Shown here: positions 1 through 9,677 of the stretch, one piece after another
How positions within the stretch are numbered: position 1 is the first letter of the stretch
Layout: each line of letters begins with the position of its first letter
NCBI GenBank assembly: GCA_023132135.1
Contig: JAGLYR010000285.1
Span: 1 to 9,677, forward strand
From: Candidatus Eiseniibacteriota bacterium
Lineage (GTDB): Bacteria > Arandabacterota > Arandabacteria > JAGLYR01
Length of the DNA: 9,677 bases
Direction: 5' to 3'
Made by a program: the position numbers and the translations under genes
The notes under the pieces: model-generated
Database searches by the model: none
Seen by the model: only the letters and a program-made list of their open reading frames with translations
What the model was told of the DNA's origin: nothing

Positions 1-1619
1 GGACTTCTAACACCGGCCGTGACAAAGGCCTCAACTGTACGTTGTGGCTCAGGCACTCCCGTCGCGGCGGCCAGGTTGGCCAAGTCAACTTGCGCCTCGT
101 GAGCTGTAGCTACCGCTGCCAAACGCAGGAAATCAAGCTCTTGGGGTGGAGTGTCGCCCACCCGCACGGCATCTTGAAGCCGCGTGATCTGAGAGCTAAG
201 CCGCGCCTCAAGCGTGTCGGTGTGGCGCAGGAAGTGGACGAACTCAAGAAGAGGCCCACGCCCTCCGAAGGTCCGCCACGCGTCTCGGAAGTTGAGCACA
301 TGGGGAATATCATGCGTGGCACGGAGATGATCATAGACTGCCTCAGCCTCACCTTCGTCAAGCACCAATTCGATGTCTCTGTGAGGTAGATCCACCATCT
401 GACCGAAGACCCGCCGCCAATCTTCCTCGCGCACTGTGACAAGCACTTTGATTGTCTGATGGCCTGCCAGAGACCTCGCTAGCTCGACCCAAGCCGTGTC
501 TCCCGGTCGAACGTCCACGACGACTAACGTATTGACGGCTGTGGCTTGTGCATGACCAGCCAGGGCCAGGGCGATGTTGCGGGCGTGTGAGTGGGTCTCG
601 ATCAAATCCACGCAATAGCGCCACATGGCTGGAAAGAAATCGTAGCAGTAGCGGTAGGAGAGCGCCGTCTTCCCTTGCCCAGACGCCCCGTGTACCACAA
701 CGACATTGGATTGGGCCAAGGAAGAGTGGATGCGGTCGAGGAGAGCGTCTCGCCTCACGTCAACACGGGCCGCGATATGCTCGGGCCGCGCTGAGACACC
801 CGAAGCGAACTCCTCGACAAGTGCTTCGCGACGATCAGCAGGAACGTCTAATTTCTCGACCGGCACAATCGTCTTGAACCATTCGTCGTGAAAGGCACTT
901 CTGTGCCTTAGGAACTGACCAATGGATGTGATCTTCTTGAGGATGAGCTTTCGATCCAATAAGGACTTCCGTTCAGCCGCTGTGTAGACCCACCACCACA
1001 GGACTTCAAGTGCCGTTTCGGGTTCCACTCCGGTGCAGAGCAGAGCGAGCCTGTTGGTGATTCGCCGAGAAACATCGTCCTCAGCCACAGTTTCGATTCG
1101 CAGGCGGTCTGCAACGCTGGCAGCGATCTCTGCATCTCCAACAGCGCGGGCAATGTAATCAACCACCTCGCTTCGTGCAGTCACGTCCTTTTCGTTCAGG
1201 GCGGCCGCCAGTCTAGGCCCGATCGGGCCATAGCTGGCGAGTGTGATGGGAATGTCTGGGTTGTCGCGGACAAGGGCTGCTGAACGGCGATAGAAGGCCG
1301 TACCAAACGAAGACGGAGCGAGGGAATCTGCCCGGCTCTTGACTTGTACAACCTCTTTGAGTTTGCCGTCTTCTCCGTAGACAGCTAGATCCTCAATCCC
1401 TTCGGGCCGGAAGCTCCAGCCATCGTCCGCGGCCAAGATCTTTTCCAGCGCGTACAGGGCTTGGAGCCGGAATCCCCGGTAGGTTGGTCCAGGGTCGTCT
1501 TCCAGAAGTTTGGGGACGTTCTTGGTGTCGTCGACCAAGCTATCACTCCATGCAGCCGAAGTCCGGAAATCAGATTCGTTGGTGGCCCAGCGAACTCGTA
1601 GCCAGCCCCGAATTGCCAA
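1..1619 (-). CDS. Nuclease-NTPase fusion (DUF4297/Cap4-like nuclease plus P-loop/STAND NTPase), partial, runs off left edge
   Basis: The frame is open without a stop from 1619 to base 1 (about 539 codons), so the C-terminus lies outside the window. Residues about 46-100 resemble a PD-(D/E)xK nuclease of the DUF4297/Cap4 type: YRGFRLQALYAL, then PEGIEDLAVY (E73, E76, D77), then EVVQVKSR (Q92, K94). A P-loop GASGQGKT lies at about 311-318, a Walker B-like LVVVDV at about 365-370, and a VTVRE segment follows near 395. Such nuclease-NTPase fusions are typical of Avs/STAND anti-phage proteins, in which the N-terminal effector cuts DNA after the NTPase and C-terminal sensor detect a phage protein; that role is inferred. 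A TGA sits directly before the TTG at 1619, so no start further upstream is possible in this frame. No ribosome binding site is well placed, and TTG at 1538 is an alternative. The start is 8 bases after the stop of the upstream NTPase gene, suggesting translational coupling. Confidence 0.82.
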   Translation of the reverse strand, partial: MAIRGWLRVRWATNESDFRTSAAWSDSLVDDTKNVPKLLEDDPGPTYRGFRLQALYALEKILAADDGWSFRPEGIEDLAVYGEDGKLKEVVQVKSRADSLAPSSFGTAFYRRSAALVRDNPDIPITLASYGPIGPRLAAALNEKDVTARSEVVDYIARAVGDAEIAASVADRLRIETVAEDDVSRRITNRLALLCTGVEPETALEVLWWWVYTAAERKSLLDRKLILKKITSIGQFLRHRSAFHDEWFKTIVPVEKLDVPADRREALVEEFASGVSARPEHIAARVDVRRDALLDRIHSSLAQSNVVVVHGASGQGKTALSYRYCYDFFPAMWRYCVDLIETHSHARNIALALAGHAQATAVNTLVVVDVRPGDTAWVELARSLAGHQTIKVLVTVREEDWRRVFGQMVDLPHRDIELVLDEGEAEAVYDHLRATHDIPHVLNFRDAWRTFGGRGPLLEFVHFLRHTDTLEARLSSQITRLQDAVRVGDTPPQELDFLRLAAVATAHEAQVDLANLAAATGVPEPQRTVEAFVTAGVRS

Positions 1620-1627
1620 TCAAACAC

Positions 1628-4120
1628 TCAACGCACCCAAGAGACACTCCTAAGGTCATCCACGAGCCACTCGTATGCGATCTTCGTTGCTGAATCAGGC
1701 TGAAAGACATCAAGCCCGCCCCAGTGCAGAGACAAGCTGAGCCATCCCGCTTGATCTGGGCGAAGAGCGCGCAGCCGATCCGCTGCAAACTGCACGCCGG
1801 GATCTTCGAAGCGGAAATCCTCGCGCCCAATCTCGAGATCCACAGTTGTCCTGCTTCCCGCTGGCAGGGGTTCCATGTACCAGCTGAAACCGGGGCTGCC
1901 ATCATATCCTCTTCCTCGCTTCCCGGGTCTGACTATTCCCACTAGACGCACTGGCAGTAACGCGGCTGTCCCCAACCTATGCCCGAATCCTGGAAACCAG
2001 CTCTTCACTAGCTCCTGGTAACCCTCCAGAGCCGCTGTGTAGACCGCTCTCGCTCGAGCGAGCATCTGGTCCTCGCTAAAGGGTTCCCAGATGTACCCGC
2101 CGTGAAAACCCCGATCAGGGCCTGGCCATGGAGGCCGCATCGCCTTATCGCCGTCTCCGAGGAGTTGTTCTACTCTGGCCTTAAGGGCTCGAATCAGATT
2201 CAAGCGATAAACCCGCCCGGGCACACTGGCGAGGGAAGTACCTTTTGGACTCTCAGGCAATCCCTTACGAATATCCTCTAGTGACAGTGGGCCTTGGCTC
2301 AACGATCCGCTGCCTGTGATTCGGAGGGCGATTTCCCATATAGCCTCGTCCATCAAACCGCCTCCCTCGAGAGGCAATAGACGCTTATCCAAGATCTCGG
2401 TGAGGTTGTCAGCGAGCTTGTCGAGAGACCATCGCCACGCCCATGCGGACTGATTACCAGTACTCACACCGTAGACCGTGTGCCAGTCGCGGTCGGCCGG
2501 ATCTGAGTCCCACCAACCGCCAGTGAGCTCGGTCACATCGTCTACACGATCTGCACCCTCATACCAGGCTACCGAAAGGGACTCACCCCTCGTGCTGACA
2601 ACGATGGGTCGCAGTGCGCCATCACCACACACCGGCGCGATCAGCTTGGCCAGGGGACCGATCCCCCTGATCCAAGTTGCCATTGATTCACGTATTCGGC
2701 GCCCACATTCTCGGGGCAACGGCAGCGAGACGTCTCCTCTGCTCCCACACCTATCCAACGCCTCGTCTACCACTACGGCGGCAAGAGCTGGGTCGCTTTC
2801 AACAGTGGGCGCGACTAGTTCGGACACCTGGTCATGGCTGAAACTGCCACAGGCTACGACTAGCGGATATCTCCAACAATCCGCTCGCTGAGGGCTCTCT
2901 GCAAGGTCGCTGGGTTTCGGTTCACCATCTGCCAGACTCTGTGCTCCAAACCATTCGGCGAGCATAGCCAATGGGAACGACAACGCCCCGGCCCGTTCGA
3001 CAACTAGCCCGGACCCCAGTAACTGGGCAATCTCTTCCCTAGTTCCGACTTCACAGGAGGGAACGGATCCGCCCCTTCGATCGATGGACAGAGTCGCTAG
3101 CTTCTTGAGAAGCGCATCCGCACTCGCAGTATCCACCTTTGCGCGACCGAGACAGCGCTCAACCAGCCCAGTGACGAGGTCGGCAGTTGATCCAGGCACT
3201 TGCCCCTTCTGCTCTCGCAAAAGGATGCCCAACACTACGGCGAAAAGAGGCCGCCGGATCGTCTCTTGCACTGACTTCGGCCACTGCTCAGCGTCCCATG
3301 CTTCAATCCGGCGTTGAGCAAAGCGTGCGACCAGTGCCAGCGCCTCTGGTTCAGAGAGTTTCGGAACCATGGCAGCCTCTTCCAGATTGGCCACGGTCGG
3401 AACAATCCTGCTAGTGATGATCGCAGACGTGTTGGGCCAGCTGCCCACAAGAATCCGAGCTTGACGGACCAGGTCGCCGGCCGCTCCGATTCCTGCTTCC
3501 TCAGCGCCATCGATTACCACAGTAGCGCCAAGTGCTCTGCAGTCTCCGAGTTTCCGTGTTTCTTCTTTGGCGGCATGTGCCAGGGAGGCGGATAGATCCT
3601 TCGCCTGCAAGTACACAGGTAGTGGAGCGTCTCTGCGGATTGTGGCGCGCTCTATGGCTCCCTGCAGCAGGCGCTCGGCAATGAGGGACTTGCCAGTCCC
3701 CATGTCGCCAATGAGTAGGAGGACCGGCTTATCTGGCTCAGACAGAAGTCCTGCACCTGGAGCTCCAACAAACGGATCCTCAGTAAGGGCAACCGCCTCC
3801 TCCCGTGGGACGCCAGCTGCCTGCCAGCGCTCAGCGCAGCGGGCCCTTGATGCCCGCTTAAGCTCCTCCAATGCGGCAGCACGGTTGCGTAAATGCTCTC
3901 TATGCGCTAGCAGCCTGAGAACTATGCGCAAAGCTACTAGCCCGACCAAGACGACCCATGCCCATTGAAGGTACGGCTTCAGCCAATCCGGAACCTGCCC
4001 TGCAGCAATACTACTCATCACCCCGATGGCAATCAGGATCAGGTCAGACCATAGCGCAGTCCACGTAGAAGCAGTCGCCTTCATAGCTAGTTCATCGTAC
4101 CCGCGGGGTTTGTCCTGCAC
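1628..4120 (-). CDS. Membrane-anchored NACHT/STAND-like NTPase, 830 aa
   Basis: Two hydrophobic segments at about residues 21-40 and 51-71 predict a hairpin membrane anchor, followed by a charged, probably helical linker (73-100). The NTPase core has Walker A GDMGTGKS (138-145), a Walker B-like VVIDGAEEA (201-209, D204) and an ITSR sensor segment (R238). Then come LSEPEALALVARF and an RRPLFAVVLGILL stretch of the kind that follows the core in NACHT proteins. A probable winged-helix portion ends with SFPLAMLAEWFGAQSL (381-396). The remaining 430 or so residues match nothing I recognise and show no clear TPR or LRR repeats; they could be the sensor. The GTG start at 4120 has GGGAAG about 8 bases upstream; ATG at 4084 (residue 13) is an alternative and would still keep both helices. 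It is the first gene of a minus-strand pair with the nuclease-NTPase. A defence role is inferred from architecture and context. Confidence 0.85.
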   Translation of the reverse strand: MQDKPRGYDELAMKATASTWTALWSDLILIAIGVMSSIAAGQVPDWLKPYLQWAWVVLVGLVALRIVLRLLAHREHLRNRAAALEELKRASRARCAERWQAAGVPREEAVALTEDPFVGAPGAGLLSEPDKPVLLLIGDMGTGKSLIAERLLQGAIERATIRRDAPLPVYLQAKDLSASLAHAAKEETRKLGDCRALGATVVIDGAEEAGIGAAGDLVRQARILVGSWPNTSAIITSRIVPTVANLEEAAMVPKLSEPEALALVARFAQRRIEAWDAEQWPKSVQETIRRPLFAVVLGILLREQKGQVPGSTADLVTGLVERCLGRAKVDTASADALLKKLATLSIDRRGGSVPSCEVGTREEIAQLLGSGLVVERAGALSFPLAMLAEWFGAQSLADGEPKPSDLAESPQRADCWRYPLVVACGSFSHDQVSELVAPTVESDPALAAVVVDEALDRCGSRGDVSLPLPRECGRRIRESMATWIRGIGPLAKLIAPVCGDGALRPIVVSTRGESLSVAWYEGADRVDDVTELTGGWWDSDPADRDWHTVYGVSTGNQSAWAWRWSLDKLADNLTEILDKRLLPLEGGGLMDEAIWEIALRITGSGSLSQGPLSLEDIRKGLPESPKGTSLASVPGRVYRLNLIRALKARVEQLLGDGDKAMRPPWPGPDRGFHGGYIWEPFSEDQMLARARAVYTAALEGYQELVKSWFPGFGHRLGTAALLPVRLVGIVRPGKRGRGYDGSPGFSWYMEPLPAGSRTTVDLEIGREDFRFEDPGVQFAADRLRALRPDQAGWLSLSLHWGGLDVFQPDSATKIAYEWLVDDLRSVSWVR

Positions 4121-4584
4121 AAGAACAACTTCCCAATACGAGAATGTGACACCCCTTGCAGGGGTAACCCTAGAGTGCCGACGATTCCTCTAGATCTCTT
4201 CTCAATTGTCGAGGGCGTCTCGCGTTTAGGACTGACAGACTAGCTGAGCTTGGCGCCGTGTCGGACCCCATCCCGCAGCCCTCCACAATCTGGGCAATTG
4301 CGCGGCAGGCCGCCCACCAAGTCTTCGATATGTTGCACCTGAAAAGCGCGCATTCTGCACCCATGTTGGATCCGGACGCGGAGCCTGCGATGCCATGTTG
4401 GGGTGGGTGACCGAGCCACTCTCGGAATGCCTCCGTGTGTCACTGAGTTGGTCCCTGATCATGGGCCAGTGCGTTGGTCGAGCCGCTGATTCTGCGGGTG
4501 CCAGACCGGCGCCCCAATAGGTTGAATCCGTGTTACTATCCGCAGTGCTCACCACTCGACGCGCAGCCATCCTGGGGGGGTAAT
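4121..4584. other. Long intergenic region between divergent genes
   Basis: This 464-base stretch separates the divergently read NTPase gene and the 381-residue gene, so it should hold both promoters. I could not place a convincing -35/-10 pair on either strand. It contains a short inverted repeat near the NTPase start and GC-rich dyads around 4291-4316 (GCGGC/GCCGC at 4302-4313; TGGGC/GCCCA at 4291-4316, mutually exclusive). Open frames exist on both strands, but none has a good ribosome binding site together with a recognisable domain. A non-coding RNA is possible but nothing shows one directly. Confidence 0.6.
4151..4165 (-). repeat. Inverted repeat upstream of the membrane NTPase gene
   Basis: ACCCC and GGGGT form a perfect 5-bp dyad around a 5-base loop, with its near edge 30 bases upstream of the GTG start at 4120. 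The position suits an operator or a small leader hairpin. It has no T-run, so it is not a typical intrinsic terminator. A dyad this short can arise by chance. Confidence 0.4.
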
Positions 4585-5730
4585 ATGGCGCATTCGGGGC
4601 GCAAGAGAAGGCCTACCAAGAAGAGAGGGACCGCTCGACCCAAGCGGAAGACACCTGACGCTTCAGGAAGAACTCCGCCCGAGGGAGAGCCATGGACCCA
4701 GCTCGAGCGGGCTCGACTTACTCAGGATCCAGAGTGGCAGAGGTTAGTACAGAAACAGCTGCGTGGGGCTCAGCGGCAGAAGACGAAAAAGACGAGGCCG
4801 CGAAAGAGCACGCCCTGGGGCTTCCGGCACATCGAAAGGTACAAACTCATTACGCTTCGCACGCTCTGCGGCAGGAAAGAGTTCAAAGAATGGCTGACTC
4901 AGCGCGAGCAATCCGCTGAGGTGTCACACGATTACAATGCGATCATTGAGCTAGTGAGCTTGGACTTGGCATACGCTGCCAGGTTCAAGAGCACGCTTGA
5001 CGTCTGGCAGGAGTGGGCTGCCGCAGGGAGCAAGTTGGCCGAGGGCTGGCTGCGCGAAGCCCTCATTCCTTCGGCGCGTAAGAAAGACGCGCCCATCCCC
5101 TTCAAGGTGGAGTTGATCCGAGATATCCATCAGGAGGTGCTTTCGGAAGGGTTTCGCGGAAGAGATGCGCTCAAGGAAACGGCTCGCCGCGTGTTTGACA
5201 TGACGGGCGAGTTCTACGGTCCCGATAACCTCAGGGAGAACATCCTCTACAGTCGAACCAAGCCCCTGACCGTGGCCCGACACCAACCCTACGAGATTCT
5301 CCAAGATCTAGCGAGCATGTTCCCTATGGACTACACGATGCCCTTGTTCAACCTCAGCCTCCTGAGGGATAGCTGTGAACGCTGCAAGTTCAGAATCCCA
5401 GATTGGGATCGTTGGAAAGACAGCAAGCACTTCAGGACATTCAAGAGCCAATTCTTGGAGCACTTCACGGTCGTCTTTCCAACCGAGAATCCCCGCCGCG
5501 CGTTTCTAAAGATGATCAGTAGCCACGACAAGCTCGCCACGCGAGAGCCCCCACCCAATCCATCTCACTGCAGGCTACTGCTACGCGGCTACGTTCCGTG
5601 CCCATACACCACGGAGATCACACGGGCGAAGCGAAAGACATCCCTCATAAGAGAATTCATCCACAATTACAGGCAGCTCCTCGCGAAAATCCCGGAACCA
5701 TATAGACCTCAATGGATTAAGTCGTTGTAG
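4585..5730 (+). CDS. Unrecognised 381-residue protein with strongly basic N-terminus
   Basis: I do not recognise this family. The ATG at 4585 is preferred because a run of seven Gs ends 4 bases upstream; the frame stays open to a TTG at 4474, but that stretch lacks a good start context. Residues 1-75 are packed with Lys/Arg (GRKRRPTKKRG, RPKRK, KTKKTRPRK) and look disordered, suggesting nucleic acid binding or a cationic tail. From about 80 the sequence looks globular and mostly helical. One CxxC pair is present (C264, C267) with further cysteines at 329 and 339, which might bind a metal. There is no Walker motif, no reverse transcriptase or recombinase motif, and no membrane segment. It is divergent from the NTPase pair and about 220 bases upstream of the M78-like gene. 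It could belong to the defence cassette or be an independent cargo gene. Confidence 0.75.
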   Translation: MAHSGRKRRPTKKRGTARPKRKTPDASGRTPPEGEPWTQLERARLTQDPEWQRLVQKQLRGAQRQKTKKTRPRKSTPWGFRHIERYKLITLRTLCGRKEFKEWLTQREQSAEVSHDYNAIIELVSLDLAYAARFKSTLDVWQEWAAAGSKLAEGWLREALIPSARKKDAPIPFKVELIRDIHQEVLSEGFRGRDALKETARRVFDMTGEFYGPDNLRENILYSRTKPLTVARHQPYEILQDLASMFPMDYTMPLFNLSLLRDSCERCKFRIPDWDRWKDSKHFRTFKSQFLEHFTVVFPTENPRRAFLKMISSHDKLATREPPPNPSHCRLLLRGYVPCPYTTEITRAKRKTSLIREFIHNYRQLLAKIPEPYRPQWIKSL

Positions 5731-5950
5731 CCGCCTCTCCCTTGGATTTACAGCCGAAATGAATACAGCCTTTTTCGCATAGTGGCACTCGAGGCACCTT
5801 GGTCTCTCGCGAGTCCTAGAGTCGAGCATCCTGACGGGATTGGCGCGACGGGCGAGGGAGCCACCAGTTGGTACGGCCGGATGTCGCAACAAGCAGCCCG
5901 GAGAGACTTCCAGATTCCGGCCAGATCCAAGCGATGCAAGGAGGATGAAG
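5731..5950. other. Intergenic region upstream of the M78-like gene
   Basis: This 220-base gap holds no gene I can support. ImmA/IrrE proteins are usually preceded by an XRE-type repressor gene, but none is found here. The frame of the M78-like gene stays open back to an ATG at 5840, but the added 37 residues are low-complexity Arg/Pro-rich sequence without an obvious ribosome binding site, so the extension is judged non-coding. I see no convincing promoter or terminator. Confidence 0.5.
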
Positions 5951-6682
5951 ATGCGAATGAGAGTCCGGCAGCTTCGTGAAGAAAAGATCGCCGCCCAAGC
6001 AAAGGACCTTCTCTCCGACTACGCTCAGTCTCGCCCTTCAACCGCGTGTCCACCGATTCCGGTAGTCCACATCCTCAGGTCGCAGTTCCACCTCGATCCG
6101 GCATACGAGGATCTCTCGCGGATTCATCGTGACGTTGGCGCGGTTGCCGCCGTCTGGTGCGGCCGCCGACAGCTTTCCATCGACCTCAGCCGGCATTCCT
6201 ACCTGGACGCGGAGCGGGAGAGCCACAGCCGACTCATCATCGCTCATGTGCTAGGACACTTGAGCCTCCACGGTGAGCACTTCTCTGCGGACCCGGACCA
6301 GTTGCCACTGTTCGGTGATGTGCCCCAGGCCCCGTGTTTCATCTGCATGCGTAGCGACATCAAACACCCACTCGAGACTCAGGCCGAGGCTTTTGCCTTG
6401 GCACTATTGATGCCCGAGCCCATGCTCCGGGATGCGTGGACGGAATGCGTCGGGCACGTGGAGCCTCGGGTCTGCGACGCAGCCGAATGGAAAGGAATCT
6501 GTCGGATAGCATCGTCTCGCGTCGACGACAGCGCCTTAGAGACGCCGGCAGAGGAGCTGATTCGGAAGCTAGCCGGCGACTTTGAGGTATCGATTCAGTC
6601 GATGGCCGGCCGGCTGAAGCAGCTACGGTTGTTCGTCCGGGCCCACCGTCCGGAACCGGCGTTGTCCACAACCCGAGTCTAG
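5951..6682 (+). CDS. ImmA/IrrE-family (M78) metallopeptidase-like protein with altered HExxH motif
   Basis: The protein (243 aa) has the M78/DUF955 layout: AHVLGHLSLH at residues 98-107 where the family has AHELGH, followed by LETQAEAFALALLMPEPML (141-159), which holds the probable third zinc ligand (E142) and the conserved FA..LLMP signature. Both zinc histidines (H99, H103) are kept, but the catalytic glutamate is Val100 (GTG, 6248-6250). Family members cleave XRE repressors or the DdrO regulator, usually to induce an element or a DNA-damage response. Loss of the glutamate predicts no proteolysis. The ATG at 5951 has GGAGG 6 bases upstream; ATG at 5945 abuts that site and is less likely. 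The usual adjacent XRE repressor gene is missing. The C-terminal part (about 195-230) resembles the region of such proteins that follows the peptidase core. Confidence 0.85.
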   Translation: MRMRVRQLREEKIAAQAKDLLSDYAQSRPSTACPPIPVVHILRSQFHLDPAYEDLSRIHRDVGAVAAVWCGRRQLSIDLSRHSYLDAERESHSRLIIAHVLGHLSLHGEHFSADPDQLPLFGDVPQAPCFICMRSDIKHPLETQAEAFALALLMPEPMLRDAWTECVGHVEPRVCDAAEWKGICRIASSRVDDSALETPAEELIRKLAGDFEVSIQSMAGRLKQLRLFVRAHRPEPALSTTRV

Positions 6683-7021: not shown

Positions 7022-7861
7022 ATGACACAAGCGACAGAATCAGATCAGACTCGCGCCGAAGAGGTTTCCGCAACGGGCAGCGAGAGTATGCTCCTTCCCA
7101 TGGAGCCTTGGCGTCCGTGGTTCCGACTATCGAGTGGGATAGTCTCCACACTGACCTGGGCCAGCCTGTCATCAAGTGCGAAGGCCGTCCTGGTTGTCTT
7201 AGCTTATCACGCAAATCAAGAGCGTGTAGCGTGGCCATCAGTCAAGAAGATTCAGGGCCTTGCCGGGACTTCCAGAAGGAGCACCTACCGTGCGCTGGCG
7301 GAACTCGAGAGTCTAGAGATCCTCGAGAAGCTGACGAGAGGTAGGTGCGGTAGATCAACGCGGTATCGGCTGCTTCACCCTGAAGACGCGGAATGCCTCC
7401 ACCTGACTGGGTGCCAGGAGTGGCACCCTCAGGGTGCCAAGGCCTGCACACACAGGGTGCCACTGGTGGCACCCGAAACAGAAGTAGTTACCACAAACAA
7501 AGAACTGAAGCAGAAGCCCCGCGCCCCTGGCGCGGGGGCTCCTTCTCCACGAATGTCCCGAACTGCATCAAGACCCAACGAGAGTCAGTCGGTCAAAGAT
7601 CAGGCGCGCAGATGGGCTCAAGGTGAGAGGCGACGCCTGAAAGAGGAAGACCCAGATGCATACGACAGGCTGTGTCGGGAGTCTCTGGCGATGGTCACGG
7701 CTGGCCTGTCTCCCGCCGAGGCTGATGCGTTCAGAGGGCGGGGATCACCTGAGAAGAGCGGAATATGGTTGGGGCGAATATACACCACGCTTGAGCATCG
7801 ATTCATAGAAGAACAGACCGAGAGGGGAGATTCGCGCGATGTCGTTGATTCCGAAGGATGA
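7022..7861 (+). CDS. Winged-helix replication-initiator-like protein
   Basis: Residues about 47-118 form a winged helix-turn-helix of the HTH_36 kind: LSSSAKAVLVVLAYHAN, then WPSVKKIQGLAGTSRRSTYRALAELESLEILEKL, ending in the wing RSTRYRL. This fold is common in replication initiators of plasmids, phages and integrative elements. Residues 125-185 are a poorly structured linker encoded by repeated DNA that looks like an origin, and 190-265 form a charged helical C-terminal region. No DnaC- or DnaB-like gene lies beside it, so how a helicase would be loaded is unknown. The ATG at 7022 has AAGGTGG roughly 11 bases upstream; ATG at 7088 is an alternative that keeps the whole HTH. The 3' end overlaps the next gene by 23 bases. 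A transcription regulator is the main alternative. Confidence 0.75.
   Translation: MTQATESDQTRAEEVSATGSESMLLPMEPWRPWFRLSSGIVSTLTWASLSSSAKAVLVVLAYHANQERVAWPSVKKIQGLAGTSRRSTYRALAELESLEILEKLTRGRCGRSTRYRLLHPEDAECLHLTGCQEWHPQGAKACTHRVPLVAPETEVVTTNKELKQKPRAPGAGAPSPRMSRTASRPNESQSVKDQARRWAQGERRRLKEEDPDAYDRLCRESLAMVTAGLSPAEADAFRGRGSPEKSGIWLGRIYTTLEHRFIEEQTERGDSRDVVDSEG
7409..7474 (+). repeat. Iteron-like GGGTGCCA repeats inside the initiator gene
   Basis: Five copies of GGGTGCCA or its complement TGGCACCC lie within 66 bases: direct at 7409-7416, 7432-7439 and 7455-7462, inverted at 7421-7428 and 7467-7474. The first two and last two form inverted pairs with 4-base spacers. They encode the unstructured linker after the winged helix, where amino-acid sequence is little constrained. 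Clustering of an exact octamer suggests binding sites for the encoded initiator. Confidence 0.75.
7515..7540 (+). repeat. GC-rich hairpin inside the initiator gene
   Basis: The left arm 7515-7525 (AGCCCCGCGCC) pairs with 7529-7540 (GGCGCGGGGGCT) around a 3-base loop, with one unpaired G in the right arm; GAAG and CTTC just outside could extend it with a bulge. It has no T-run and lies mid-gene, so it is unlikely to be a terminator. It encodes an Ala/Pro/Gly-rich linker. Confidence 0.7.
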
Positions 7862-8301: not shown

Positions 8302-8514
8302 GTGAATGATCAGGCCAATCTTCCCATCCTCTTGAAGCCTGAGGAGGTGGCAGACCTCCTCAGGACAAGCCGCGACGCTATATACACAATGAACCAACGT
8401 GGCCAGTTGCCGGGAGGCACTCGAATCGGACGCCGTCTTCTCTTTCGTCGAGACAATGTGCTAGAATGGCTGGAAGAAAGACGTGCGCCATCGGCTGAGG
8501 AGTTGCGGCGATGA
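8302..8514 (+). CDS. Excisionase-like HTH_17/MerR-type DNA-binding protein
   Basis: The 70-residue protein is a single winged-helix domain of the HTH_17 (excisionase/MerR-like) family: LLKPEEVADLLRTSRDAIYTMNQRGQLPGGTRIGRRLLFRRDNVLEWLEERR. Proteins of this type bind and bend DNA at attachment sites and steer the integrase towards excision. The GTG at 8302 is preferred because GGAGAAGG ends 3 bases before it, with GGAG at about 7 bases; an upstream TTG at 8284 would add six residues without a good site. The stop overlaps the integrase start in an ATGA, so the two are translationally coupled. The pairing supports recombination directionality factor over transcription regulator, but the sequence alone cannot separate them. 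Confidence 0.85.
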   Translation: MNDQANLPILLKPEEVADLLRTSRDAIYTMNQRGQLPGGTRIGRRLLFRRDNVLEWLEERRAPSAEELRR

Positions 8515-9611
8515 GCGTGAAGATCAGACCGTTTCGAGGAGGAGGCTGGGAGGTGGACATCCGCGTGCGGTTGCCCGACGGGACCTGGAAGCGGGAGCGC
8601 AGGAAGGCTCCTGTCTCCTCTAAGTCCGGAGCAATACGTTGGGGGCAGGACTGTGAGCGCGAGATTCTGCTCCATCGCCCGGCAAAACTGAGAAAGGGGG
8701 TGCCAACGCTCGCTGAATTCGCTCCGAGATTTCTGGAAGGGTACGCGCTGGCCAATCGCCAGAAGCCGAGCGGGATCGCCGGGAAGGAGACCATTCTTCG
8801 CGTGCACCTGCTCCCGCTACTTGGGACGAAGAGACTGGATGCCATCGGGAATGAGGACATCCAGAAACTGAAGGGCGCACTCGACCAGAAGGCAGCTAAG
8901 ACGGTCAACAACATCTTGTCCGTGCTCAACACCTTGCTTCGGGTCGCCGTCGAGTGGGAAATCATCGAGCGGATGCCATGCACGGTGAAACTCCTCCGTA
9001 CTTCGACCACGGAGGCAGCGTTCCATGAGTATAAAGAGTACGCTCGCCTCATCGAGGCCGCCAGGTCAGTCGATGAGAGGGCGCACCTCGCTGTACTCTT
9101 GGGTGGGGATGCCGGGCTGCGGTGCGGGGAGATCATGGCTCTGGAGTGGACCGACATCGATCTTGATAGACAGCGACTCCGGGTCGAACGCTCCGAGTGG
9201 AAAGGCCGGGTGACAGACCCCAAAGGTGGACGTTCCCGATTGGTGCCGTTGACAAGCCGTCTGGCCGAGGCTCTTCGCGCTCACCGGCATCTGCAGGGAC
9301 ACCGCGTGCTCTGCGATGAGGACGGGCAGCCGCTCTCACAGAAGGTGGTGCAGCTCCTCGTCAGGAGATCTGCTGAGCGGGCGAACCTGGCCGAGAAGGG
9401 AGTCCACATTCTCCGCCATACATTCTGCTCGCATCTGGCGATGCGCGGGGCTCCTCCCCGGGCCATCCAGGAGCTGGCCGGACACAAGAATCTGAGCACC
9501 ACGGAGAGGTACATGCACCTCAGTCCGGCCGCAATCGAGGGGGCCATCCGGCTGCTCGAACAGCCCGGATCCGGCCCAGTTTGTGGAGAGATAATGGAGA
9601 CAGGCACCTGA
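8511..9611 (+). CDS. int: Tyrosine recombinase (phage-type integrase)
   Basis: A full-length 366-residue integrase. It has an N-terminal arm-binding-like region (1-60, GGGWEVDIRVRLPDGTWKRER), a core-binding SAM-like domain (about 65-165) and a catalytic domain (about 170-350). All catalytic residues are visible: R204 in GLRCGEI, K238 in PKGGRSR, H299 and R302 in HILRH, H325 in GHKNL and the nucleophile Y334 in TERYMHLS. It should catalyse site-specific integration and excision of the element. It starts within the excisionase stop (ATGA) and ends 35 bases from the tmRNA 3' end on the other strand, the expected place for an integrase using that gene as its attachment site. Nothing suggests decay. 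The integrase is intact, so the element may still be mobile if its far end survives. Confidence 0.96.
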   Translation: MSVKIRPFRGGGWEVDIRVRLPDGTWKRERRKAPVSSKSGAIRWGQDCEREILLHRPAKLRKGVPTLAEFAPRFLEGYALANRQKPSGIAGKETILRVHLLPLLGTKRLDAIGNEDIQKLKGALDQKAAKTVNNILSVLNTLLRVAVEWEIIERMPCTVKLLRTSTTEAAFHEYKEYARLIEAARSVDERAHLAVLLGGDAGLRCGEIMALEWTDIDLDRQRLRVERSEWKGRVTDPKGGRSRLVPLTSRLAEALRAHRHLQGHRVLCDEDGQPLSQKVVQLLVRRSAERANLAEKGVHILRHTFCSHLAMRGAPPRAIQELAGHKNLSTTERYMHLSPAAIEGAIRLLEQPGSGPVCGEIMETGT

Positions 9612-9639: not shown

Positions 9640-9677
9640 AGATAGATGGTGGAGGCGGCGGGAATCGAACCCGCGTC
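9640..9677. other. Presumed attachment site (att) at the tmRNA 3' end
   Basis: Tyrosine integrases encoded beside an RNA gene usually recombine within that gene's 3' end, leaving the RNA gene intact and a direct repeat at the other element end. The integrase orientation and 35-base spacing fit this. The second copy of the core is not in the window (no other match to the T-arm sequence was seen), so the exact boundaries are unknown and the call is inferred. Confidence 0.6.
9647..9677 (-). ncRNA. ssrA: 3' end of tmRNA gene (ssrA), partial
   Basis: Read on the minus strand, the last 31 bases give a T-arm GCGGG-TTCGATT-CCCGC, preceded by GAC, followed by an acceptor 3' strand CGCCTCC, then A and a CCA end at 9647. 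This agrees with the widely conserved tRNA-like 3' end of tmRNA, which rescues stalled ribosomes by trans-translation. The rest of the gene lies beyond the right edge. A tRNA with a similar T-arm (for example a serine tRNA) cannot be excluded because the anticodon or tag region is not visible. Confidence 0.75.

What the first reader, a model, noticed from the sequence alone, without database searches (positions are those of the whole stretch)
1..4120. Candidate two-gene defence cassette: membrane-anchored STAND NTPase plus nuclease-NTPase
Seen: two adjacent minus-strand genes 8 bases apart, each with its own P-loop NTPase. The first carries two N-terminal membrane helices and the second a QxK-type nuclease-like domain. 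Known: STAND/NACHT proteins with N-terminal effectors (Avs, bacterial NACHT proteins) are anti-phage sensors, usually acting alone. Inferred: a tandem of two STAND-like proteins with different effectors (membrane and DNA cleavage) could be a cooperative or layered abortive-infection system I cannot match to a named type. Location inside an integrative element supports defence cargo.
Basis: partly seen in the sequence, partly recalled or inferred. Interest (0 to 1): 0.75.

Follow-up and report, generated by a model that had tools for sequence, protein, structure and literature searches.

The report
Two independent STAND anti-phage immune genes
The window carries two neighbouring genes for alarm proteins that probably defend the bacterium against viruses, but relatives show that each works as a separate unit, and the second gene has apparently been cut in two by a jumping element here, so this is a defence island and not a new two-part machine.

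Summary
Both genes are real STAND-type NTPase genes, and defence is the best reading. The proposed two-gene system is not supported.

Gene 1 (1628-4120, minus) belongs to a rare, unnamed family. Its STAND NTPase plus ~360-residue C-terminal module is conserved, while the N-terminus is swapped between relatives: two membrane helices here; EAD10, SMEK, alpha/beta hydrolase, HNH or TIR/SEFIR elsewhere. The same C-terminal module also sits on NB-ARC NTPases with caspase or hydrolase effectors. This looks like one conserved sensor with exchangeable effectors.

Gene 2 (window start to 1619, minus) is a Cap4/LmuA-type nuclease fused to an nSTAND NTPase (~1,400 residues in relatives). E73, D77, Q92 and K94 are invariant in nine sequences.

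In 12 other gene-1-type and 9 other gene-2-type loci the families are never neighbours, and no other searched genome has both.

The window is a whole contig. Gene 2 continues on contig C301; both contig ends carry multicopy insertion-sequence ends with a 5-bp duplication, so gene 2 is apparently disrupted here. C301 continues with a ThaI-type restriction-modification pair and a PD-T7-1-like gene: a defence island beside a tyrosine integrase at a tRNA 3' end. No function was tested.

The parts
1628..4120 (-). Gene 1: 830-aa STAND NTPase with an N-terminal two-helix membrane segment
   Evidence: family
3851..4120 (-). Gene 1 N-terminus, residues 1-90: swappable effector position; two hydrophobic helices (22-40, 54-72), weak DUF4231 (E 0.047) and SLATT_1 (E 0.22) matches over residues 14-91
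   Evidence: helices 17-39 and 45-101 in an otherwise poor model
3686..3709 (-). Gene 1 Walker A, residues 138-145 (GDMGTGKS)
   Evidence: conserved in relatives
3497..3520 (-). Gene 1 Walker B, residues 201-208 (VVIDGAEE; consensus VVIDGxDE)
1631..2710 (-). Gene 1 C-terminal module, residues 471-830: conserved in all relatives and also fused to NB-ARC NTPases; probable sensor
   Evidence: no Pfam, NCBIfam, PADLOC or PHROGs match
3..1619 (-). Gene 2, 5' part: Cap4/LmuA-type nuclease plus nSTAND NTPase; continues on contig C301 (34465-37284, minus) after an insertion
1338..1403 (-). Gene 2 nuclease motif, E73 to K94 (E, D, QxK)
   Evidence: E73, D77, Q92, K94 invariant in 9 sequences
666..689 (-). 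Gene 2 Walker A, residues 311-318 (GASGQGKT)
1..23 (.). Right end of a multicopy insertion sequence interrupting gene 2
   Evidence: same end at 3 places in the genome; partner end on C301 at 3 places
24..28 (.). Target-site duplication AAAGG, also found at the IS junction on C301
   Evidence: the empty site reads in frame like the Pseudanabaena homologue
8511..9611 (+). Tyrosine integrase of the carrier element
   Evidence: Pfam Phage_integrase E 3.8e-31; phrog_1 integrase E 3.6e-55
9645..9677 (-). 3' end of a tRNA gene, probable attachment site
   Evidence: GGTTCGATTCC T-loop and CCA end; only copy in the assembly
7022..7861 (+). HTH_36, phage O-like replication initiator of the element
5840..6682 (+). 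M78 (ImmA/IrrE-like) metallopeptidase
   Evidence: Pfam E 5.1e-5; capP model E 1.1e-8

Best explanation
Two separate STAND-type anti-phage proteins lie side by side in a defence island carried by or next to an integrase element; they are not one machine. Gene 1: its C-terminal module probably recognises a phage product, the NTPase oligomerises, and clustering of the N-terminal membrane helices damages the inner membrane (abortive infection). Gene 2 in intact relatives: the large C-terminal half senses a phage product, the NTPase assembles, and the PD-(D/E)xK-like Cap4-type nuclease cuts DNA. In this genome gene 2 is apparently split by an insertion sequence, so only gene 1 is likely to work. 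Shown: the sequences, the domain and motif conservation, the swapping of effectors, the lack of linkage, and the insertion-sequence ends with a duplication. Inferred: the defence role, sensing, oligomerisation and the effector outcomes.
For: Gene 1 relatives keep the NTPase and C-terminus and swap the N-terminus: EAD10 (PF19954, E 1.6e-22), alpha/beta hydrolase (LCAT, E 2e-8), HNH (PADLOC effector models, best E 1.4e-34), SMEK (E 3.4e-46), SEFIR/TIR (E 2e-4). The C-terminal module alone is shared with caspase-NB-ARC and hydrolase-adjacent NB-ARC proteins (A1 profile E 1e-29 and 9.5e-24, over C-terminal positions only). Gene 2: LmuA model E 3.7e-11, nSTAND_NTPase5 E 4.4e-7, full-length homologues of about 1,300-1,430 aa standing alone, catalytic and P-loop residues invariant in 9. 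No locus outside the window has both families and no searched genome other than the window's has both. Island: ThaI endonuclease E 5.9e-76 and N6_N4 methylase next to gene 2's 3' end, PD-T7-1 model E 1.4e-123. IS.
Against: I found no published test of a member of either subfamily. Both families are rare, so zero co-occurrence is expected by chance too (4 x 3 / 386 is about 0.03); it excludes obligate pairing but not a pairing peculiar to this lineage. The IS junction is inferred from contig ends, not from a read or contig spanning it. Structure predictions from single sequences were too poor to confirm the folds (mean pLDDT 45.3 and 42.7).
Confidence: 0.75

Rival explanations
1. The two genes form one cooperative defence system in which both STAND proteins sense or act together, with membrane and DNA damage as layered outcomes.
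For: Same strand, close spacing, both with effector-NTPase layout. In Nostoc the gene-1 relative is also followed about 16 bp later by a second STAND gene, but that one is an EAD10-NACHT protein, not a gene-2 relative.
Against: 0 of 12 and 0 of 9 other loci are linked. Gene 2 is interrupted here while gene 1 is intact. Full-length relatives of both stand alone in many replicons.
Confidence: 0.07
2. Gene 2 is not interrupted in the living population: the contig break is an assembly artefact or strain mixture, and an intact copy exists.
For: No contig spans the junction; the assembly has 345 contigs.
Against: Both contig ends carry distinct IS ends, each present at three places, with a matching 5-bp duplication, and the empty site reads in frame.
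Confidence: 0.12
3. One or both are regulatory STAND proteins (MalT-like) or cell-death modules unrelated to phage.
For: STAND NTPases include transcription regulators such as MalT (PMC10427625 abstract). I found no functional test for these subfamilies.
Against: Effectors in the families are nuclease, TIR/SEFIR, caspase-linked, hydrolase and membrane types, and neighbours here are restriction-modification and PD-T7-1-like genes.
Confidence: 0.1

Closest known systems
Effector-swapping STAND conflict systems, including EAD10 systems (Kaur et al. 2020, 2021; PMC7159879, PMC8195603)
   Same: Gene 1 family has a constant NTPase plus C-terminus and an exchangeable N-terminus; a Nostoc member carries EAD10 with an EAD10-bearing caspase gene next door.
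   Different: The window's C-terminal module has no named family, and its N-terminus is a two-helix membrane segment, not an EAD. The published EAD10 archetype has TPR repeats, a GreA/B-C domain and a PIN domain in its C-terminus (PMC8195603).
AVAST (Avs) STAND proteins
   Same: Gene 2 has the Avs-like layout: N-terminal nuclease, P-loop NTPase, large C-terminal half.
   Different: Only the P-loop region hits the Avs4 model, far below cut-off (14.1 bits against 1500); no match to the named Avs types.
Bacterial NACHT proteins with PD-(D/E)XK effectors (bNACHT25, clade 6; PMC12169576)
   Same: Nuclease effector fused to a STAND NTPase.
   Different: Gene 2's NTPase fits nSTAND_NTPase5/nSTAND3, not NACHT; no NCH1 domain shown.
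Lamassu LmuA / CBASS Cap4 nuclease
   Same: Gene 2's N-terminal domain matches LmuA (E 3.7e-11) and weakly Cap4_nuclease, with conserved E, D, QxK.
   Different: Fused to a STAND NTPase; no LmuB among the neighbouring genes examined.
SLATT/DUF4231 two-helix membrane effectors
   Same: Gene 1 residues 14-91 weakly match DUF4231 and SLATT_1 at the same place.
   Different: Both below cut-off; membership not established.

Membership tests
STAND NTPase superfamily (gene 1) | Walker A, hhhhDGxDE-type Walker B, sensor TSR | tested here: met
   GDMGTGKS 138-145, VVIDGAEE 201-208, TSR 236; consensus VVIDGxDE in relatives; Pfam AAA_16 E 5.8e-4, below curated cut-off
STAND NTPase superfamily (gene 2) | P-loop NTPase matching an nSTAND model | tested here: met
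   nSTAND_NTPase5 E 4.4e-7, 30.2 bits against cut-off 34, so significant but under the curated score; homologue in L077 passes the cut-off (34.7)
AVAST Avs1-Avs4 | Match to an Avs family model above cut-off | tested here: not met
   Avs4 14.1 bits against 1500; PADLOC Avs4 E 0.013; gene 1 no match
Cap4/LmuA-type nuclease (gene 2 N-terminus) | Model match and conserved E, D, QxK active-site residues | tested here: met
   LmuA E 3.7e-11; residues invariant in 9; Cap4_nuclease over cut-off only in the related Sphingopyxis protein (27.4 against 26.2)
Lamassu system | LmuA gene with an adjacent LmuB SMC-like ATPase gene | tested here: not met
   Neighbours are gene 1 and ThaI endonuclease/methylase genes
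Two-gene system gene 1 + gene 2 | Orthologues adjacent in unrelated genomes | tested here: not met
   0 of 12 and 0 of 9 other loci
SLATT/DUF4231 membrane effector (gene 1 N-terminus) | Model match above cut-off; two membrane helices | tested here: inconclusive
   DUF4231 E 0.047, SLATT_1 E 0.22; two hydrophobic segments
Anti-phage defence (both genes) | Reduces phage infection | not testable with these tools
   Needs a plaque assay

The most novel reading that the evidence does not exclude
The C-terminal ~360 residues of gene 1 are an unnamed phage-sensing module that has been joined to two different NTPase types (its own STAND type and NB-ARC) and, over the family, to about seven different effectors in Actinomycetota, Bacillota, Cyanobacteriota and the window's small phylum.
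Probability: 0.5. Interest if true: 0.5.

Novelty: new member of a known kind. Interest (0 to 1): 0.33.

Why it matters
The claimed two-gene system would have been a new design for bacterial immunity; the evidence instead shows two solo alarm proteins in one island. What is left of value is a rare, unnamed gene 1 family in which one conserved C-terminal module meets many effectors and two kinds of NTPase, a good natural case for asking whether sensing specificity lies in that module.

Tried and rejected
Genome-contig scans with single-protein queries gave no relatives; viral-contig scans with alignments gave none; the phage collection gave no gene-1 relative and one gene-2 relative, an unannotated 8.7-kb gut record. 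The window's phylum holds only 8 searchable genomes, and none but the window's own has a gene-1 relative. PDB sequence searches gave only weak matches, mostly around the P-loop. Single-sequence AlphaFold models were too poor for a fold search, so none was run. Rfam found nothing. Membership in Avs and Lamassu was considered and rejected. Many weak genome hits are P-loop matches only and were not counted as relatives.

Full report
What is there. The window is a complete contig, G000:C207, of a 3.4-Mb draft genome with 345 contigs. Two long minus-strand ORFs occupy 1628-4120 and 3-1619, the second open at the contig edge. Gene 1 encodes 830 residues with hydrophobic segments at about 22-40 and 54-72, a Walker A at 138-145, a Walker B at 201-208 and a TSR at 236. 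Gene 2 has a Cap4/LmuA-like nuclease start (LmuA E 3.7e-11) and an nSTAND NTPase (nSTAND_NTPase5 E 4.4e-7). The 8-base gap between the genes relies on a TTG start at 1619; homology begins about 40 residues later.

Gene 1 family. tblastn in plasmids found relatives at about 24-36% identity in Nostoc, Priestia, Niallia, Microbacterium, Gordonia and Rhodococcus. The NTPase and C-terminus are conserved, and the N-terminus is different nearly every time. Nostoc has EAD10 (E 1.6e-22) with an EAD10-bearing caspase gene upstream; Priestia an alpha/beta hydrolase; Rhodococcus p52 an HNH domain matching CBASS/SAVED effector models; Rhodococcus YL-1 a SEFIR/TIR domain in the open frame upstream of the annotated start; a cyanobacterial genome a SMEK domain. 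Two further cyanobacterial proteins share only the last ~360 residues and carry an NB-ARC NTPase, one fused to a caspase, one next to a hydrolase gene. Aligned to the window protein, their NTPase region is 13-17% identical, their C-terminus 24-25%. All-against-all BLASTP links the C-terminal regions of the nine proteins compared, while between the N-termini it finds five pairs, four of them confined to the short stretch just before the NTPase. The C-terminal module has no match in Pfam, NCBIfam, PADLOC or PHROGs and was found in none of 385 other diverse genomes. That the larger genome set was cyanobacterial was inferred from HIP1 octamer counts in its centre genome and from the Nostoc plasmid turning up in it.

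The window's N-terminus. Residues 14-91 weakly match DUF4231 (E 0.047) and SLATT_1 (E 0.22) at the same place. A two-helix membrane effector is the likeliest reading, but its family is not established.

Gene 2 family. Full-length relatives of about 1,300-1,430 residues stand alone in Pseudanabaena (41% identical), Deinococcus, Hymenobacter and other genomes. The match is to nuclease and nSTAND models, not to an Avs type.

Are they a pair? The other gene-1-type loci number 12 (10 of the same NTPase plus C-terminus type, some truncated, and 2 with the C-terminal module only) and the other gene-2-type loci 9. None contains both, with flanks of about 4-8 kb where the record allowed. In 386 cyanobacterial genomes 4 had a gene-1-type and 3 a gene-2-type match, none both. 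Because both are rare, absence of co-occurrence is weak evidence against occasional pairing, but it speaks against a conserved two-gene system.

Gene 2 is interrupted. A profile search found gene 2's C-terminal half on contig C301 (34840-37266, the open frame running to the contig end at 37284). The last 25 bases of C301 occur at three places in the genome, and the first 23 bases of the window at three places. By eye the two ends resemble each other as imperfect inverted repeats. Both flanks carry AAAGG, and a script that placed the flanks side by side showed an in-frame empty site reading VPEPQRTVEAFEKEYFLRL, matching the Pseudanabaena protein. The simplest reading is a multicopy insertion sequence in gene 2 with a 5-bp duplication. 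Its family was not identified, and no contig spans it.

Surroundings. Downstream of gene 2 on C301 come a ThaI-type restriction endonuclease (E 5.9e-76), an N6_N4 methylase, a PD-T7-1-like gene (E 1.4e-123) and, on the other strand, a gene with a pPIWI-associated nuclease domain. On the other side of gene 1 lie an M78 peptidase, an O-like replication initiator and a tyrosine integrase ending at a tRNA 3' end. This is a defence island in or beside an integrative element; the second attachment site was not found.

Mechanism. From established knowledge of STAND immune proteins, gene 1 probably senses a phage product through its C-terminus, oligomerises, and disrupts the membrane; intact gene-2 relatives probably assemble and cut DNA. 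These steps are inferred, not shown.

Verdict. Observation confirmed; the defence reading is likely; the two-gene cassette is not supported; novelty is that of new members of a known kind, with an unnamed C-terminal module worth following.

Noticed in passing
L003 6301-13836 (Nostoc plasmid pn3): A cluster of EAD10-bearing genes: caspase, gene-1 relative, then a second EAD10-NACHT gene about 16 bp downstream, and a CHAT gene whose start also matches the EAD10 region.
   Followed up: partly
G000:C301, L049 11189-12376: Gene with a pPIWI-associated nuclease domain (pP_pnuc_1, E 1e-28) in the same island; no Argonaute gene was looked for.
   Followed up: no
G000:C301, L049 3387-3743: 23S rRNA intervening-sequence protein family member (E 2.9e-26) near the island.
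   Followed up: no
window 4474-5730, plus strand: 418-aa ORF divergent from gene 1 with no match in Pfam, NCBIfam, PADLOC or PHROGs.
   Followed up: no
L032 5044-8409 (MT836892): A gene-2 relative of about 1,110 aa in an unannotated record labelled as phage from human faeces.
   Followed up: partly
L076 6299-10306 (G717): A gene-2 relative whose nuclease domain is missing, with a short separate ORF in its place in the same frame and a TGA inside the gene: decay or another effector arrangement.
   Followed up: partly
L005 7977-9692 (Niallia): Gene-1 relative truncated at its 5' end beside an IS110 transposase gene: possibly a second case of transposon damage in these families.
   Followed up: no
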